Both the position numbers and the translations under genes were made by a program. A stretch of DNA of 64,000 nucleotides from Ancylostoma caninum (taxonomy: Eukaryota; Nematoda; Chromadorea; Rhabditida; Ancylostomatidae): assembly GCA_037903475.1 (NCBI GenBank), contig JBAJFG010000582.1:62001-126000 (forward strand), written 5' to 3'. Below are positions 20,350-64,000 of this stretch, piece after piece (within the stretch, counting starts at the first letter, position 1; each line of letters starts with the position of its first letter). Below the pieces are notes generated by a model that had not been told where the DNA came from, ran no database searches, and saw nothing but the letters and a program-made list of their open reading frames with translations.

Positions 20350-20825
20350 ATTGTTATTGGATTGGCCTTCTGAACCAAATTATAATTTTCCTCATTCTCC
20401 TGAACCTGTCTTAAAGGCAGAGGGTCACCTCGTTCTGTCTGTTGGATTTACCAACATATCCTAGACCTTCTCATCATGTTGATCCCTGGGATGTACATCA
20501 ACAGGCACAGAAGCGACGAAATCCCCATTTTTGAAAGGCTCGAACTGGATAAAAATTTGGAGCCCGGAGGCGGATCGCTCCAAGCTGTGCTGGCTGCCTG
20601 CCACGGCTGCCGCGTCGGTCAACGAGTCTTGGCGTGTCCAATCGATAAGATCAACGGCTTCACATGTCAACTCGGGTTGGCAAACTGTTACAGACCCCGT
20701 CCTGGAAGACGGGTTTGTAGACCATTCTGAGACAATTTATGTATACCGTTGGAACCATCGCGCCGAGTAGATGCAGCATCTGCTGTTAGCTGAAATACGA
20801 AAATGAGGTGGACTCCTGCCTTTAA
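20350..20825 (+). repeat. Dispersed repeat family E, copy 1
   Basis: It shares CTAGACCTTCTC, CCCCATTTTTGAA, GGTTGGCAAACTGTTA, ACCCTGTCCCGGAAAACCGG-like and TTCTGAGACAAATTA words, in order, with 59860-60360, and partly with 32280-32370. Here the segment corresponding to the (AT)n tract of the other copy is only CCAACATATCCTAGACC. Confidence 0.7.
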
Positions 20826-20830
20826 CGCCT

Positions 20831-22096
20831 TTGAGCAACCCGTCGCGTTTTTTCCATCGCGTATGCCGCGCGCGGCTAGATCCAGAGTGGTCCGGGCGAG
20901 GGGCGGGCCTTGGTGAGGCGCCGATTCAGGTGACCGTCCCCAGACAACAGGCGCTGATGTCCACTCTTCCCATTTGGCAAAAAACAATCGACTCCTACGG
21001 TTACGTTACTGCATGTTTTATCGACTACCGCAAGGCGTTTGACTCCATTCCATTAGACCTCCTGTTTGCGAAACTCGAGGCATATGGAATTCGTGGTAGA
21101 CTGTTGAAATTCCTTCAAGCATTTTTGAGTGAGCGCGTGCAGCAAGTCCACGTGAACGACGATTTTTCGAATTCATATCCTACCGCGAGTGGGGTTCCCC
21201 AAGGTACTTGTCTTGGTCCCTTGATGTTCATTTTATACATAAATGATTTGCCGGAGTGCCTCCCCCCTGGTATCCGCTGTTGCATTTATGCGGACGATTG
21301 TAAACTGTACTCCTTGAACGACTACCATCTTATGCAACCTGCGCTAGACGCATTGGTCAGCTGGTCTGCCAGATGGGGCCTGGAAATATCTCGCGAAAAA
21401 ACCACGATGATGCTTCTCGGCTCGTACCATCCGTGTTGCAACTTTTACCTAGGGAACCATCAATTGCAGATCGCACACTCCGTTCGGGATCTTGGTATAT
21501 CTTATACAGATGAAATGAGATTCGACTCCTACATTGCCGAAATAGTTAACCATGCCTACATCAGATCCAACCACATTTTGAAGGCGTTCACGATTAGGAA
21601 ACTAGATACACTTTTCAAACTTTTTCAGACTTATGTACGACCGCTACTAGAGTACTGCACTCCAGTATGGTCCCCTTCAAAACAAGTCCAAATTGGGTTA
21701 CTGGAAGGTGTTCAGAGGCAATTCACCTATAGGATATTCAGAAGGAATGGAATCTCTGATCTAAGCTATGAGGATAGGCTTCTTCGACTCAAAACCACCT
21801 CTTTAGAATTTAGACGAGTCATCTACGATCAAAACTTAATTTTCAAGATAACTTTAGAAGATGTTGACATTGACCTGAACACCCTCTTTTCGCTTTCAAG
21901 CTTTAACGGCAGAACGAGAGGCCATCCATACAGATTTGTCATGGAAAAAGCTCGAACGCAGCAGTATCGCGAGTCCTTTGTTCCTCGGACGATTCCAATG
22001 TGGAATATGTTACCAGCGGCAATCGTGTTTTCGTCGTCTTCACCATCATTCATCACCAAACTTGAGGCTTTTCTTAAGCAGAGGGGGTTCCATTAG
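20831..22096 (+). CDS. CR1-like reverse transcriptase (5'-truncated ORF2)
   Basis: RNA-directed DNA polymerase of a non-LTR element; in the complete element it copies the element's RNA at a nicked target. Seen in order: FIDYRKAFDS (residues 63-72, motif A with catalytic Asp65), SGVPQGTCLGPLMF (120-133), YADD (153-156, the two catalytic Asp residues), REKTTMMLLG (about 194-203), RPLLEYCTPVWSP and the C-terminal RTIPMWNMLP block. The frame is uninterrupted and the catalytic residues are intact, but the N-terminal endonuclease and the start of the RT domain are missing. It cannot therefore move on its own. Residues 1-40 are probably not native protein. The intact frame suggests a fairly recent insertion. 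Confidence 0.85.
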   Translation: MSNPSRFFHRVCRARLDPEWSGRGAGLGEAPIQVTVPRQQALMSTLPIWQKTIDSYGYVTACFIDYRKAFDSIPLDLLFAKLEAYGIRGRLLKFLQAFLSERVQQVHVNDDFSNSYPTASGVPQGTCLGPLMFILYINDLPECLPPGIRCCIYADDCKLYSLNDYHLMQPALDALVSWSARWGLEISREKTTMMLLGSYHPCCNFYLGNHQLQIAHSVRDLGISYTDEMRFDSYIAEIVNHAYIRSNHILKAFTIRKLDTLFKLFQTYVRPLLEYCTPVWSPSKQVQIGLLEGVQRQFTYRIFRRNGISDLSYEDRLLRLKTTSLEFRRVIYDQNLIFKITLEDVDIDLNTLFSLSSFNGRTRGHPYRFVMEKARTQQYRESFVPRTIPMWNMLPAAIVFSSSSPSFITKLEAFLKQRGFH

Positions 22097-38284: not shown

Positions 38285-38292
38285 TATATAAA
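38285..38292 (+). promoter_or_regulatory. T-A-rich core promoter (TATATAAA) of the tandem-exon gene
   Basis: TATATAAA within GTGTATATAAACCACAG lies about 47-54 bp upstream of the ATG at 38339. A TTTCCAG at about 38319-38325 could be a trans-splice acceptor. Confidence 0.6.
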
Positions 38293-38338
38293 CCACAGTG
38301 GAGTAGGTTATGCGCTGATTTCCAGTTTGGAGTGTACT

Positions 38339-41300
38339 ATGAAGGTGGCCGTGGCCGTATTACTACTCTCATGTTGCTGCTTCAACGCGAAATCGATTAA
38401 AAAGGAACCACTGGGCAGTTATCGCACTGCGTCTGTTGTGGACGACATCAGTAGAGAGGCAAGACGTTACAAAAGATACGGGAGCGAAAGAAGATCCGAA
38501 TACGGCGATGATCGTGCGATTGATGACCATTACCTAGACGGAATTCTGGACCAGGAGAATCGTCGTAACATCAGGTAAGGCCCGATTTCACAGATCATCA
38601 CGGAGACCATATATAATCTAGACAGATCATAATATAAAAAGAATGGTAAGCAAAATGCGCGGGCAAATTCTGTACCCATGTTGCGGCGCGGTTGCGTTTA
38701 CGGTCACAGCGACTGGAGCAGACTACAATGCAGTTTTTTCTCAACTAATGGAATTTCGGTTTTTTGACAGGTTCACCGGGATTGGACGGGCGCTGTGGCT
38801 TGCCGCGCGATTGATCGGTGTCGCGCATCCGACGGGGATTGCCGCGGGGTGCGGCGGCGGGGTTGGACCTCTCCAATTTCGATGGGACCTTCAAATTTGG
38901 ATGGGGACCTTGACCGGACTGACCGATCGATGCCCTAAACTTGAAATTCAACGGGGATTGCGATGGGGGAACGGGGACGGGAGTTGAGATCTCGGATTTT
39001 GACGGGACCATCAAATTTTGGACGGGGTACCTTGAAGGACATGGCCACGGGGGTCAGAACGGGGGACGGGGTTTGACCACTCGACGTTTAACATCACTTT
39101 GAATTTGGGCGAGATCGAAAGCTGATTGCACCGCTTGCGACCATGTCATGTTCACAGCACGCCATCGCGTCCGATCTGGGCTGGGATTCATAAAACGATA
39201 ACCAAGCAAACCCAGTCTAACAACCAACTTTTGCCGTCTGCGTCTCTTAGCACCATGTAGTCAATACGATAACCAATCACACTAGGCATCCTTGGTTTGC
39301 TTGGTTATCGTTTCATGAATCCCAGCCCTGGCAAGTTTGGTAACGTCGGGAGTGGTTAGTATTTGGATCGGAGACGCCTCGAGATTTCCAGGTGTCCGAG
39401 GGTTTTTTTTTCGATTTTTGTTTTGCACCTTGCCTATCTCCTCCATATCATAATATAGAAAGAATGGTAAGCAAAATGCGCGGGCAAATTCTGTACCCAT
39501 GTTGCGGCGCGGTTGCGTTTACGGTCACAGCGACTGGAGCAGACTACAATGCAGTTTTTTCTCAACTAATGGAATTTCGGTTTTTTGACAGGTTCACCGG
39601 GATTGGACGGGCGCTGTGGCTTGCCGCGCGATTGGTCGGTGTCGCGCATCCGACGGGGATTGCCGCGGGGTGCGGCGGCGGGGTTGGACCTCTCCAATTT
39701 CGATGGGACCTTCAAATTTGGATGGGGACCATGACCGGACTGACCGATCGATGCCCTAAACTTGAAATTCAACGGGGATTGCGATGGGGGAACGGGGACG
39801 GGAGTTGAGATCTCGGATTTTGACGGACCATCAAATTTTGGACGGGGTACCTTGAAGGACATGGCCACGGGGGTCAGAACGGGGACGGGGTTTGACCACT
39901 CGACGTTTAACATCACTTTGAATTTGGGCGAGATCGAAAGCTGATTGCACCGCTTGCGACCATGTCATGTTCACAGCACGCCATCGCGTCCGATCTGGGC
40001 TGGGATTCATGAAACGATAACCAAGCAAACCCAGTCTAACAAACCAACTTTTGCCGTCTGCGTCTCTTAGCACCATGTAGTCAATACGATAACCAATCAC
40101 ACTAGCCATCCTTGGTTTGCTTGGTTATCGTTTCATGAATCCCAGCCCTGGCAAGTTTGGTAACGTCGGGCGTGGTTAGTATTTGGATCGGAGACGCCTC
40201 GAGATTTCCAGGTGTCCGAGGATTTTTTTTTTCGATTTTTGTTTTGCACCTTGCCTATCTCCTCCATATCATAATATAAAAAGAATGGTAAGCAAAATGC
40301 GCGGGCAAAATCTGTACCCATGTTGCGGCGCGGTTGCGTTTACGGTCACAGCGACTGGAGCAGACTACAATGCAGTTTTTTCTCAACTAATGGAATTTCG
40401 GTTTTTTGACAGGTTCACCGGGATTGGACGGGCACTGTGGCTTGCCGCGCGATTGATCGGTGTCGCGCATCCGACGGGGATTGCCGCGGGGTGCGGCGGC
40501 GGGGTTGGACCTCTCCAATTTCGATGGGACCTTCAAATTTGGATGGGGACCATGACCGGACTGACCGATCGATGCCCTAAACTTGAAATTCAACGGGGAT
40601 TGCGATGGGGGAACGGGGACGGGAGTTGGGATCTCGGATTTTGACGGGACCATCAAATTTTGGACGGGGTACCTTGAAGGACATGGCCACGGGGGTCAGA
40701 ACGGGGGACGGGGTTTGAGCACTCGACGTTCAACATCACTTTGAATTTGGGCGAGATCGAAAGCTGATTGCACCGGTTGCGACCATGCCATGTTCACAGC
40801 ACGCCATCGCGTCCGATCTGGCAAGTTTGGTAACGTCGGGCGTGGTCCCCTCCGGTGCATCTATCGACATTTCTGGTGATTATCGATTTTTTGGGGGATT
40901 CACAAACTACCAGGGAATGAGTCCTCATCCAACAACATGGCTATTGTGCAGAGACTTCGAGAACCGACGGTTTTAGTTTCTATACAAATTTCTAACTTTT
41001 CCTGTTTTGCAATTTTGGTATAGGAAAACGTAGCGGGCGGGAGGTGGGTGGTAATAAAGTCCGGGAAAGCTATATGACTAGCGCCCTTGTGCTTGCAGAT
41101 GGTGCTCCGTGAGTGCGACGTGATAATAGCATCCGCGAATCTATCGATGTGTCCGGTTTTCGTGCGATTTTTCGAAGAATTCGACGACTTACGAGCGAAA
41201 ATGTGGGGAAAAATTCGAAGGAATTGCGAAAACCTTGGTTTCCCTTCCAGAATCCCCTTCACTCTTCCTTCTAGCACCCTATTAATATGACAGGAGTATA

Positions 41301-44300
41301 GGAAATTGATCTCGCGGCAACCTACTCCCGAATCCATCCTTCATCTTATACAATCTCTCCTTCTTTCTAGGCCATTGAGGGAGAATATGTAGTGCATAGT
41401 GTTCTACACAGCATTGAGGTTCAAAAAAACTTCCACTGCAGGAACATCATCTAGAAAGAAACAAAGAAGGGTTTCACATGGTCACTATAATCCACTCCTC
41501 TTCCTGAGATTGAGCAAAACCGTAGAGAAAACTCACCCTCCCACCTTCTCGTGTGTCTCCCCCACCCTGTCAATTCATCCCGTTCCTGAGTTCAGGCAAA
41601 GAGTGAGAGAAAAATTGATACACTCGCTTTATGGGTCTGACAGAGCTCATTGATGCAGCACCTTCTCTAAGTCAAGGCAAATTTTGAATCTTAATAGGAT
41701 AAAAGAATGTATTATAGATAAAAGCGCACAGGAAAGTCAGTCTTCTCACCACTTATTTCTCTCAGCAACAACATGGATCATCTCCCTTCCCAGAAACTCA
41801 GGCAATAGCCTAGGCAATAATTCGCGCACCCAACCCGTGTATCTCAACAACCCCGTGGATCACCCTCTTTTCCTAAGCTTAGGCAAAAGCTTAGACAGTA
41901 ACTTGCGCATCCACCCTATGCATTTCGCCAACCTCGTGAATGACCTCCCTTCCCAGAAGCTCAGGGAATAGCCTAGACAATGACTTGCGACCCACCCCAT
42001 GTATCTGGCCTACCCCGTGGATTACCTCCTTTCCAGAAGCTTATGGAAGAGCCTAGGCGGTAAACTGCGCACCCACCCCATGTATGTCACCAACCTCAAG
42101 GATAACCACTCCTTCCTATGCTAAGGCGAAAGCCTAGACAATAACTTGCACACCCACCCCATGTATCTGGCCAACCCTGTGGATTACCTCCCTTTCTAGA
42201 AGCTCAGCCGGAAGCTTAGACAACAACTTGCACACCCACCCCATGTATCTGGCCAACCCCGTGGATTACCTCCCTTTCCAGAAGCTCAGGCGGAAGCCTA
42301 GACAATAACTTGCACACCCACCCCATGTATCTGGCCAAACCCGTGGATTACCTCCTTTTCCAGAAGCTCAGGCGAAAGCCTAGACAATAAATTGCACACC
42401 AACCCCATGCATCTGATCTGGCCAACCCCGTGGATTACCTCCCTTTCCGGAAGCTCAGGCGAAAGCCTAGACAATAACTTGCACACCCATCCCATGTATC
42501 TGGCCAACCCCGTGGACTACCTCCCTTTCCAGAAGCTCAGGCGAAAGCCCAGACAATAACTTCACACCCTCCCCATGTATCTGGCCAAACCCGTGGATTA
42601 CCTCCTTTTTCAGAAGCTCAGGCGAAAGCCTAGACAATAACTTGCACACCCACCCCCGGCATCTGGCCAACCCCGTGGATTACCTCCCTTTCCAGAAGCT
42701 CAGGCGAAAGCCTAGACAATAACTTGCACACCCACCCCCGGCATCTGGCCAACCCCGTGGATTACCTCCCTTTCCAGAAGCTCAGCCGGAAGCTTAGACA
42801 ATAACTTGCACACCCTCCCCATGTATCTGGCCAACCCCGTGGATTACCTCCCTTTCCAGAAGCTCAGGCGAAAGCCTAGACAATAACTTGCACACCCACC
42901 CCATGTATCTGGCCAACCCCGTGGATTACCTCCCTTTCCAGAAGCTCAGGCGAAAGCCTAGACAATAACTTGCGCACCCACCCCATGTATCTGGCCAACC
43001 CCATGGTCATCTCCTCAAAGCTTATTGTTAGCATGGCTACTTATCTCATTTTTATGAGCACATTTTTTAAACATTTTTTTGTGTTCAAAAACCATTTCTT
43101 TGAAATTGGGACACTGCGCGAATTCTGCTGATTGCAAGGTAGTGCAGAAGAACAGTGTTCCGAAGTGATGGCTATAATCATCGTTTGGAACTTTTCTATT
43201 CGACGCAATTCTGTGGTGTCGTATTGGTGATTCGATAAAGAAAAAGAAACTGGGTAGGAAATAGATGGTCTTGATGTTAATTTTTTCTTCTCATTTGATT
43301 TTTGATGTCAGTTTTTGTTCGTAACTTTCTTGTTCATAACCGAAATATAAAATTGTTTTCATAAGTTTTGTTTGAACTACGGGGATGTGATAGTCATACG
43401 TAGCGATAACGCTAAGCGAGTACTTGAATGGTTGATTTACCAAGCGATTTACCAAATTTGTACAAATCAACTGTGTTAAAACAATATGAAGTAGCGCATC
43501 TCAAATTTGAGGAAATTAGTCCTACAACAAGTTGGCGCACATGAAAAAAAAAACACTGGGTCATTACTGTCACAGTTTTTGGAGCGTACTACACTAACGT
43601 AACTTACGGGGCCACTAGTCACAGAAAAAGATTTATCGAAAGTTCAGATCTGAGATGGGCAGAACACGCGATTCTGGAGATCATGACTCAACAGACGATA
43701 ACACCAAGTCTGGAAGGATAAACCGCCTGAAGCAACTGAACCGCGACTCCAAACCTAGTTCTTCAAACGCTGACTACACAGACTATGCAGATTACAACCC
43801 CTACTATTATCAGGACAAAACAGAAGACCTGGCCGATGAGTTTTATGAGGACGAGGGAATGCCCGACTACACAGATTATGACGCCGACTATCCTCTGGAC
43901 AGAAACCGAGACCAGGTGGATCGGTATAGCTCCAGCACCAAGAACAAGAAAAGGTCCGATCACAGAGACTATTATGCGGGCAAACTGCGGAAAATGATAA
44001 AGCGGATCCTTAAATCCGAGACGGGGAGATCACGCGATTACCCAGACTATGACGCAACGGACGATAGTCGAACTAGTTCTTTTATAAAGAAACTCATGCA
44101 CCCACTAATAAGGAACTCCAGACGTGGTTTCATAAGAAATTCAGACAGTGAAGAAGAAGAGCGGGAAGAGTATGATGGACAGGAAGAGAGAGACAGTGCC
44201 TACCCTGATTATCGAGATGATTCTGATGATGAAGAAGATGACGATGGAAGTCAACACCTAACTGACCGTATCAAATCTGTAGGAATTGCTCACTTGGTAA

Positions 44301-61880: not shown

Positions 61881-63010
61881 AAAATCATGACTTATAATAA
61901 CGGGCTTAGTTTGTTTTCGTGTCTGTCTGTATGAATGTGTGTCAGACCGTTACGAAATTCTATAATTGGTCAGTGATCGTGATTGTGAGATCATATAAAA
62001 GCCTAGGAATGGGTGTGGTATGGTTGAGTGGGGTTGGGATGAGATCGAGGAGAAGGTTGGACAATCTGCAACAGATCCGCCAATGGGGTCAATACAGAAG
62101 GGCTGCGCCGGCGCCCAGAACTGGGGGAGATGGGTCCACCACTGTGATAAGGGTGCGCCGGCGCCCAGAAGTGGGGGAGATGGGTCCACCACTGTGATAA
62201 GGGTGCGCCGGCGCCCAGAAGTGGGGGAGACGGGTCCACCACTGTGATAAGGGTGCGCCGGCGCCCAGAAGTGGGGGAGATGGGGCCACCATTGTGAGAA
62301 GGGTGCGCCGGCGCCCAAAAGTGCTGGAGACGGGTTCACTGCTGTGGTAAGGGTGCGCCGGCGCCCAGAAGTGCTGGAGACGGGTTCACTGCTGTGGTAA
62401 GGGTGCGCCGGTGCCCAGAAGTGGGGGAGACGGGTCCACCACTGCTGTGATAAGGGTGCGCCGGCGCCCAGAAGTGGGGGAGACGGGTCCACCGCTGTGA
62501 TAAGGGTGCGCCGGCGCCCAGAAGTGGGGGAGACGGGTCCACCACTGTGATAAGGGTGCGCCGGCGCCCAGAAGTGCTGGAGACGGGTTCACTGCTGTGG
62601 TAAGGGTGCGCCGGCGCCCAGAAGCGGGGAGATGGGTCCACCACTGTGATAAGGGTGCGCCGGCGCCCAGAAGTGGGGGAGACGGGTCCACCACTGTGAT
62701 AAGGGTGCGCCGGCGCCCAGAAGTGGGGGAGACGGGTCCACCACTGTGATAAGGGGCGCCGGCGCCCAGAAGTGGGGGAGATGGGTCCGCCACTGTGATA
62801 AGGGTGCGCCGGCGCCCAGAAGTGGGGGAGATGGGTCCACCACTGTGATGAGGGTGCGCCGGCGCCCAAAGGTGGTTAAACGCATGGCGGTCCAGCTTTG
62901 TGATAAGGGCGCCCGCGTCCAGAAAAGGAAGTTCGTCACGGTTTACGTAAATTTCTTCAAGGTGGTGCCCTGGCACCCGTTCCGGCAATTCCTTCTACCT
63001 ATGTGACCTA
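61880..63010 (+). mobile_element. Composite repeat with GCGCCGGCG minisatellite, copy 1
   Basis: Head ACTTATAATAACGGGCTTAG, a GTCTGTCTGTATG region and TTGGTCAGTGATCGTGATTG; then about 16 units (62103-62880) of GTGCGCCGGCGCCCAGAAGT, GGGGGAGACGGGTCCACCAC, TGTGATAAG; then the tail TACCTATGTGACCTAGGTGC. The same head, array and tail order occurs at 63348-64000. Open frames across the array are artefacts. Confidence 0.75.
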
Positions 63011-63347: not shown

Positions 63348-64000
63348 GTAGTATGCGAGCGAAGCGAGCATCAGTAGAAGTCTGGAAGTCCGGCGTTAGC
63401 CGGACGGCCAGACTGGTGACTTACAATAAAGGGCTTACAATTAGTCTGTCACGTGTGTGTGGGTGTGTGTGAAACGAAATTCCTCCCTGATTGGTCAGTG
63501 ATGGTGATTGCCGGGTCAACAAGATGATAGGGACGGGTATGGTGAGGTTCAAAGAATGAAGAGAAGCTCTAAAGGATGGGGAAGTGGGGAGCGGTGAGTG
63601 CGTCGTGTTGCAGTGGGTGCGCGGACCCCACAAGGTGGAGAACACCTACAAACAGGTCCAGCGGTGTGATAATGGTGCGTCGGCGCCCAAAAGTGAGGGA
63701 ACGCCTAGAGTCGGGTCCAACGGTGTGGTAAGGGTGCGCCGGCGTCGGAAAGTGGGGAAACGCCTGGGATCGGGTCCAACGGTGTGATAAGGGTGCGCCG
63801 GCGTCGAAAAGTGGGGAAACGCCAGGAGTCGGGTCCAACGGTGTGATAAGGATGCGCCGGCGTCCACATGTAATATGAATTCGCTAGGCGGGCCTATTTC
63901 TGCATGAGCGGTACGCTTACCCTGTTTCGGCGGACCCTCCTACCTAAATCACCTAGATGCACATTGTTTCCTTTCGTATCCGTGTTCTCTTCCCATTCCG
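63348..64000 (+). mobile_element. Composite repeat with hairpin module, copy 2 (continues past window)
   Basis: TATGCGAGCGAAGCGAGCA, then the hairpin 63379-63414 (AGTCTGG-AA-GTCCGGC-GTTA-GCCGGAC-GG-CCAGACT), GACTTACAATAAAGGGCTTA, TTGGTCAGTGATGGTGATTG, three to four minisatellite units (63655-63867) and the tail TACCTAAATCACCTAGATGC. This gives the full order of the composite. It is possibly a non-autonomous Helitron-type element, but no CTRR-type end was verified. Confidence 0.7.

What the first reader, a model, noticed from the sequence alone, without database searches (positions are those of the whole stretch)
38339..46499. Undescribed secreted-protein gene built from small phase-0 exons, with a seven-unit tandem exon array
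A signal-peptide exon, an Asp/Tyr-rich exon and eleven small downstream exons join in one frame across 8 kb. Every junction from the second exon on is phase 0, so exons can be skipped or multiplied without frame loss. The design recalls micro-exon genes of parasitic flatworms, and the sequence matches no family I know. The acidic tyrosine clusters suggest sulfated, extracellular protein.
Basis: partly seen in the sequence, partly recalled or inferred. Interest (0 to 1): 0.88.

Follow-up and report, generated by a model that had tools for sequence, protein, structure and literature searches.

The report
Hookworm secreted protein with exon array

Summary
The gene is real, but its 3' end was misread. 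The window belongs to a 348 Mb Ancylostoma-like genome, which holds an intronless, unbroken 475-codon copy of the gene on another contig. This retrocopy is a natural record of the mRNA. It confirms the 5-kb exon 1/2 splice and splicing of array exons, and suggests transcript ends near 38317 and 46525. It also shows that the last three exons are read in other frames. Their junctions are phase 1 and 2, and they encode an eight-cysteine domain conserved in A. caninum ANCCAN_23002, A. duodenale Aduo_006584 and a third locus in this genome. So phase 0 holds for exon 2, the array and exon 10 only. The middle array unit stands once in the retrocopy and five times here (three units against seven in all). 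No convincing Pfam domain was found. The layout resembles filarial ALT proteins, but the ALT domain test fails. Most likely this is a secreted, fast-changing host-interface protein with a constant cysteine-rich head; function is inferred. In this window the junction into exon 11 does not keep the relatives' frame.

The parts
38285..38291 (+). TATA-like box
   Evidence: TATATAA at 38285; about 30 bases upstream of the point where homology to the retrocopy begins (38317)
38317..38338 (+). 5' untranslated region; probable transcript start near 38317
   Evidence: Homology of the intronless C140 copy to the window begins at 38317
38339..38574 (+). Exon 1: hydrophobic leader (by eye) and RYKR site
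   Evidence: retrocopy 93% over 258 columns; P0001 96% over 79 columns; junction 38574/43648 24 of 24 bases in the retrocopy
38575..43647 (+). Intron 1, holding an ~822-bp direct repeat (38623-40821, 98%) and an 82-bp satellite (41774-43006)
   Evidence: absent from the retrocopy
43648..44278 (+). Exon 2: acidic Asp/Tyr-rich region (longer form ends at 44296)
   Evidence: retrocopy joins 44278 to 44341 (23 of 24 bases); P0001 keeps VGIAHL, the longer form
44341..44418 (+). Array unit 1 (78 nt, phase 0)
   Evidence: 3 differences of 78 to retrocopy unit 1
44480..44557 (+). Array unit 2 (middle type)
   Evidence: 3 differences to retrocopy unit 2
44620..44697 (+). Array unit 3 (middle type)
   Evidence: 4 differences to retrocopy unit 2
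44760..44837 (+). Array unit 4 (middle type)
   Evidence: 3 differences to retrocopy unit 2
44900..44977 (+). Array unit 5 (middle type)
   Evidence: 4 differences to retrocopy unit 2
45040..45117 (+). Array unit 6 (middle type)
   Evidence: 3 differences to retrocopy unit 2
45174..45239 (+). Array unit 7 (66 nt; 12 nt shorter at its 5' end than retrocopy unit 3)
   Evidence: 1 difference of 66 to retrocopy unit 3; P0001 has the same short form
45993..46064 (+). Exon 10: linker with RNRR basic site and NAS/NDT sequons
   Evidence: identical to the retrocopy over 74 bases and to P0001 over 24 residues; sites seen in the translation and in retrocopy and P0001
46132..46246 (+). Exon 11 segment with the first two cysteines; its junction from exon 10 does not keep the relatives' frame in this window
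   Evidence: tblastn of P0001 and P0003; retrocopy alignment; splice context
46302..46380 (+). Exon 12 (starts phase 1, ends phase 2; three cysteines)
   Evidence: retrocopy junction 46246/46302 24 of 24
46437..46503 (+). Exon 13 (three cysteines) to stop codon TGA at 46501-46503
   Evidence: retrocopy junction 46380/46437 24 of 24
46504..46525 (+). 3' untranslated region; probable poly(A) site near 46525
   Evidence: homology to the retrocopy ends at 46525, followed there by an A-rich stretch

Best explanation
This is a spliced gene of a hookworm (Ancylostoma, close to A. caninum) for a predicted secreted protein. Shown: its exon structure, from an intronless genomic copy of its mRNA; a family with at least three places in this genome and homologs in A. 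caninum and A. duodenale; a conserved C-terminal domain with eight cysteines; a variable acidic, tyrosine-rich and repeat-built middle; a middle array unit that stands five times here and once in the retrocopy. Inferred: each 140-bp exon-plus-intron unit is phase 0, so unequal exchange can add units without breaking the frame. Inferred: the protein enters the secretory pathway and may be cut at basic sites (RYKR, RNRR). Inferred: the cysteine-rich domain is the folded working part, and the acidic/basic middle is a disordered, fast-changing spacer or pro-region exposed to the host.
For: Intronless 475-codon copy at G000:C140 without stops; its ends fit a TATA-spaced start and a poly(A)-like end; 5 of 7 tested junctions match 24 of 24 bases. 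P0001: 70% over 95% of the query, E 6.3e-251, and 415 of 422 residues identical in gap-free columns outside units 1-6. P0003: 76% over 93% of the 85-residue C-terminus. Cysteine spacing 15-10-5-10-4-10-6 in P0001 and P0003. A third locus at C41 has a leader-like exon, a 51-bp acidic repeat (10.3 copies) and three C-terminal exons with the same splice phases. Units pair w1-r1, w2 to w6-r2, w7-r3. Exons 1+2 against the retrocopy: dN 0.041, dS 0.080.
Against: No RNA or protein data were available. The signal peptide was judged by eye. In this window the junction into exon 11 does not keep the relatives' frame, so this copy may not make the full C-terminus, or the assembly may be wrong there. Units 2-6 differ as little in introns (0-2 of 62 where lengths are equal) as in exons (0-3 of 78), so there is no sign of selection on the units since they duplicated. 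Exons 10-13 show 4 nonsynonymous and 0 synonymous changes against the retrocopy, which does not look like strong constraint on the C-terminus between these two copies. The C41 domain has one extra residue between cysteines 6 and 7. The structure model is poor (mean pLDDT 39.4). Host-interface function rests on analogy only.
Confidence: 0.6

Rival explanations
1. Precursor of a cationic cysteine-rich peptide: the acidic middle and the array are a pro-region, cut off at RNRR, that releases a basic eight-cysteine peptide with antimicrobial or host-directed activity.
For: Exon 2 charge about -18 and C-terminus of P0001 about +8, pI 9.2; RNRR close to an NDT sequon in the retrocopy and P0001; C-terminus far more alike than the middle between P0001 and P0003.
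Against: No processing data; P0003's C-terminus is only about +2, and no RNRR was found in P0003; the array itself is basic (+20), unlike a plain acidic propiece.
Confidence: 0.25
2. A nematode counterpart of schistosome micro-exon genes: isoforms with different numbers of array units are made by alternative splicing.
For: Eight symmetric exons of 66-78 nt; two exon-2 donors 18 nt apart, in frame, one used in the retrocopy and one in P0001.
Against: Small symmetric exons are 606 of about 1731 coding nt; three-unit copies can also reflect a three-unit gene; MEGs 'appear to be restricted to platyhelminths' (PMC4350168, passages).
Confidence: 0.12
3. A decaying locus: the window's copy is losing function (altered exon 11 junction, satellite-filled intron 1, shortened unit 7) and the retrocopy or other members do the work.
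For: Junction into exon 11 out of frame; unit 7 with its intron is 122 nt against 140; retrocopy open throughout.
Against: The other exons are open; the short unit 7 is shared with P0001, which is predicted intact and is 415 of 422 identical in gap-free columns outside units 1-6; a small assembly error would explain exon 11.
Confidence: 0.2
4. A structural extracellular-matrix or cuticle protein with repeat spacers and a cysteine-rich end, not host-directed.
For: Nematode cuticle proteins with C-terminal cysteine domains exist (PMC11925461, passages).
Against: The cysteine-cradle spacing in that paper (C-x22-C-x7-P-x3-C-x9-C) does not match, and Pfam gave no such hit; apart from one compositional hit, only Ancylostoma proteins were found, in searches that score a capped set of candidates.
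Confidence: 0.15

Closest known systems
Ancylostoma caninum hypothetical protein ANCCAN_23002 (P0001)
   Same: Same gene or its direct ortholog: 415 of 422 residues identical in gap-free columns outside units 1-6; same short unit 7; same C-terminus
   Different: Three array units instead of seven; a 31-residue extra copy of an acidic segment in exon 2
Ancylostoma duodenale hypothetical protein Aduo_006584 (P0003)
   Same: Leader, acidic Tyr-rich middle, eight-cysteine C-terminus (76% over 93% of that part of P0001)
   Different: 284 aa, no array; only one weakly similar stretch in its place
Filarial ALT proteins (Pfam PF05535)
   Same: Layout: leader, variable acidic region, conserved cysteine-rich domain (PMC555940, passages)
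   Different: No PF05535 match; this genome has a separate ALT-type exon at C164 with another cysteine arrangement
Schistosome micro-exon genes
   Same: Leader plus small symmetric exons (PMC4350168, passages)
   Different: Symmetric exons are a minority of the coding sequence; phase 1 and 2 junctions at the 3' end; a conserved cysteine domain; nematode, not flatworm

Membership tests
ALT (PF05535) | Signal peptide plus variable acidic region before the conserved domain | tested here: inconclusive
   Acidic region shown; leader judged by eye, no predictor run
ALT (PF05535) | Match to the conserved cysteine-rich ALT domain | tested here: not met
   No PF05535 hit at E up to 5 for P0001, its C-terminus alone, P0003 or the retrocopy; the same scan finds a 39-aa piece of a separate ALT-type exon of this genome at 3.2e-14
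Micro-exon genes | Most of the coding region in very small symmetric exons | tested here: not met
   606 of about 1731 nt; smallest internal exon 66 nt
Micro-exon genes | Alternative splicing makes pools of variant proteins | not testable with these tools
   No RNA data; two exon-2 ends seen in two copies
Cysteine-cradle (PF23626) | C-x22-C-x7-P-x3-C-x9-C | tested here: not met
   Spacing in P0001 and P0003 is 15-10-5-10-4-10-6; no such Pfam hit
ANCCAN_23002/Aduo_006584 family | Eight-cysteine C-terminus with spacing 15-10-5-10-4-10-6 | tested here: met
   Window exons 11, 12 and 13, read apart, hold 2, 3 and 3 cysteines and align to P0001 without gaps; contiguous in the retrocopy. C41 has one residue more between cysteines 6 and 7

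The most novel reading that the evidence does not exclude
Hookworms carry a secreted family in which a conserved eight-cysteine head is joined to spacers that are rebuilt by different repeat devices in different members (tandem phase-0 exons here, a 51-bp acidic repeat at C41, none in the A. duodenale protein). Array-length variation, and possibly alternative use of near-identical exons, would give variable antigens, a nematode analogue of flatworm micro-exon genes.
Probability: 0.25. Interest if true: 0.75.

Novelty: new variant of a known kind. Interest (0 to 1): 0.52.

Why it matters
Fast-changing secreted proteins are candidate points of contact between hookworm and host. Here one genome holds the gene, a spliced retrocopy and a diverged sister, so the growth of an exon array can be read directly and its length variation can be tested in worms from the field.

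Tried and rejected
Three of them (DUF7890 29.9 against 26 bits, DUF2065 28.6 against 24.3, DUF2250 27.7 against 24.4) pass the curated whole-protein cut-off, but with no stretch significant on its own and all on the array. P0001 and the retrocopy do not reach those cut-offs, and P0003 has no hit. I reject them as summed repeat composition. P0002 (E 6.5e-7, 36% over 31%), a long protein with KEEVE-type repeats, was dropped as compositional. In one search only the 8000 candidates sharing most words were scored, so absence elsewhere is weak evidence. PDB by sequence, with the P0001 C-terminus: 0 of 177635. PDB by fold: one match, E 4.4, meaningless on a model of pLDDT 39. NCBIfam: two hits far under cut-off. 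Helical-moment tests of six stretches gave 415 to 2151 of 10000 shuffles at or above the observed value, so no amphipathic-peptide claim is made. No clear target-site duplication at the retrocopy (longest shared word 5 bases). BLASTP of exon 2 against itself gave only the full-length match, although tblastn aligned P0001 weakly to a second place in exon 2. Rfam and tRNA scans of the window: none. The promoter scan is for bacterial sites and of no use here. Print searches in the held library: ANCCAN_23002 and Aduo_006584, 0 papers each; Ancylostoma with tyrosine sulfation, 0; micro-exon genes with nematode, 11 listed, none on hookworm by title. Searches gave listings, from which only PMC555940, PMC11925461, PMC4350168 and PMC7071665 were opened, each as passages. 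The passages of the hookworm secretion review PMC7071665 show no such family.

Full report
WHAT IS THERE. Tandem Repeats Finder also sees the array, as a 140-bp unit. A protein search of about 5.8 billion sequences, in which the 8000 candidates sharing most words were scored, gave two hits at E up to 10: ANCCAN_23002 of Ancylostoma caninum (P0001, 508 aa, 70% over 95% of the query, E 6.3e-251) and a repeat-composition hit that I dropped. A search with the C-terminus of P0001 gave P0001 itself and Aduo_006584 of A. duodenale (P0003) among 12 candidates. A search with P0003's C-terminus gave only itself among 7 candidates. Outside units 1-6, P0001 and the window's exons, read apart, agree in 415 of 422 gap-free columns; 33 gap columns, 31 of them one acidic segment, were set aside. 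The window is therefore from a hookworm close to A. caninum; the exact species was not settled.

THE RETROCOPY. The window lies in a 348 Mb genome of 638 contigs. Exon 2 matches two places there: the window and G000:C140:729134-729766. The C140 copy is one open frame of 475 codons that runs through the exons without introns. Its homology to the window starts at 38317, about 30 bases after a TATATAA box at 38285, and ends at 46525, where the copy continues with an A-rich stretch. No clear target-site duplication was found. Of the 12 junctions of the model, seven were compared over 24 bases. Five match 24 of 24. Exon 2/unit 1 matches 23 of 24 if exon 2 ends at 44278. Unit 6/unit 7 matches 16 of 24, because the window's unit 7 has lost its original 5' border. 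The junction into exon 11 was left out of that test, and the four junctions among units 2-6 have no counterpart in a three-unit copy. It does not show that the window's seven-unit copy is expressed today.

The retrocopy, P0001 and P0003 end in the same eight-cysteine domain, with spacing 15-10-5-10-4-10-6 in P0001 and P0003. The exon 11/12 and 12/13 junctions are phase 1 and phase 2, as they are in a third family member at C41. In this window the junction from exon 10 into exon 11 does not keep the frame seen in the retrocopy and P0001. Intact copies exist elsewhere; whether this is a real change or an assembly error was not settled, and no repair was attempted.

THE ARRAY. The window has seven units and the retrocopy three. 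Window unit 1 pairs with retrocopy unit 1 (3 differences of 78), units 2-6 with retrocopy unit 2 (3-4 of 78), and unit 7 with retrocopy unit 3 (1 of 66). Units 2-6 differ from each other by 0-3 bases of 78, and the introns after units 2-5 by 0-2 of 62. So the middle unit has multiplied, probably after the retrocopy formed. Because introns are as alike as exons, this shows recent duplication and not selection on the unit. P0001 has three units, but it is a prediction, and repeats may be collapsed in a draft assembly. A DNA search with the array gave three matches at two places in this genome, the window and the retrocopy.

THE FAMILY. P0003 matched 8 stretches in this genome: two at C140, four at the window and two at C41; such counts are lower bounds by the tool's own note. 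The family thus keeps its end and changes its middle. Exons 1 and 2 differ between window and retrocopy with dN 0.041 and dS 0.080; exons 10-13 have 0 synonymous and 4 nonsynonymous changes in about 66 synonymous and 255 nonsynonymous sites. No formal test was made, and the second figure does not speak for strong constraint. A simulation with substitutions only left 18%, 9% and 5% of neutral copies without a stop at 3%, 4% and 5% change, so the open retrocopy hints at constraint but does not prove it.

HOW IT MAY WORK. The middle is acidic in exon 2 (charge about -18) and basic in the array (about +20); the C-terminus of P0001 is basic (about +8), that of P0003 barely (about +2). Tyrosines in exon 2 stand in acidic context more often than in shuffles (10 of 18 against 5.4; 47 of 2000 shuffles reach that), which permits sulfation. 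RYKR and RNRR sites and NAS/NDT sequons are present in the retrocopy and P0001; P0003 keeps NDT but neither basic site in that form. I infer a secreted, perhaps processed and glycosylated protein with a folded cysteine-rich head and a variable spacer. The structure model is too poor to say more than that the head is predicted mainly helical.

WHAT IT IS NOT. It is not an ALT protein by the domain test. PF05535 finds one place in this genome, C164, whose cysteines are arranged differently, and a scan that detects a 39-aa piece of that exon at 3.2e-14 gives no such hit for the retrocopy. P0001, its C-terminus alone and P0003 also had none. It is not a micro-exon gene in the sense described for schistosomes (PMC4350168, passages), since small symmetric exons are about a third of the coding sequence.

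VERDICT. A real and spliced gene (about 0.93 by my estimate), a hookworm family without a convincing described domain in the libraries searched, and an exon array that grew. The function stays inferred.

Noticed in passing
G000:C140:728881-730352 (L003 8382-9853): Full-length intronless copy of the gene with an open 475-codon frame; may be a working retrogene.
   Followed up: yes
G000:C41:964658-979685, minus strand (L013, L014): Diverged family member with a 17-residue acidic repeat (WSDDYEEDERNESNRNK type) and no exon array found in the part read.
   Followed up: partly
38623-40821: About 2.7 copies of an 822-bp direct repeat, 98% alike, inside intron 1, each with a stop-to-stop frame of over 120 codons.
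   Followed up: no
41774-43006: 82-bp satellite, 15 copies, inside intron 1.
   Followed up: no
48259-48707, 62098-62875, 63655-63866 and the C41 locus: 50- to 59-bp GC-rich minisatellite family (GGTGCGCCGGCG...) recurs in the window and in C41.
   Followed up: no
20807-22096: Reverse transcriptase open frame (PF00078, 8.4e-25), a possible source of retrocopying activity.
   Followed up: no
45993-46525 against L003 9498-9853: Exons 10-13 show no synonymous difference from the retrocopy while exons 1-2 do; possible gene conversion.
   Followed up: no
G000:C164:8920123-8920236 (L015): ALT-type exon (PF05535) beside a long simple-repeat stretch.
   Followed up: partly
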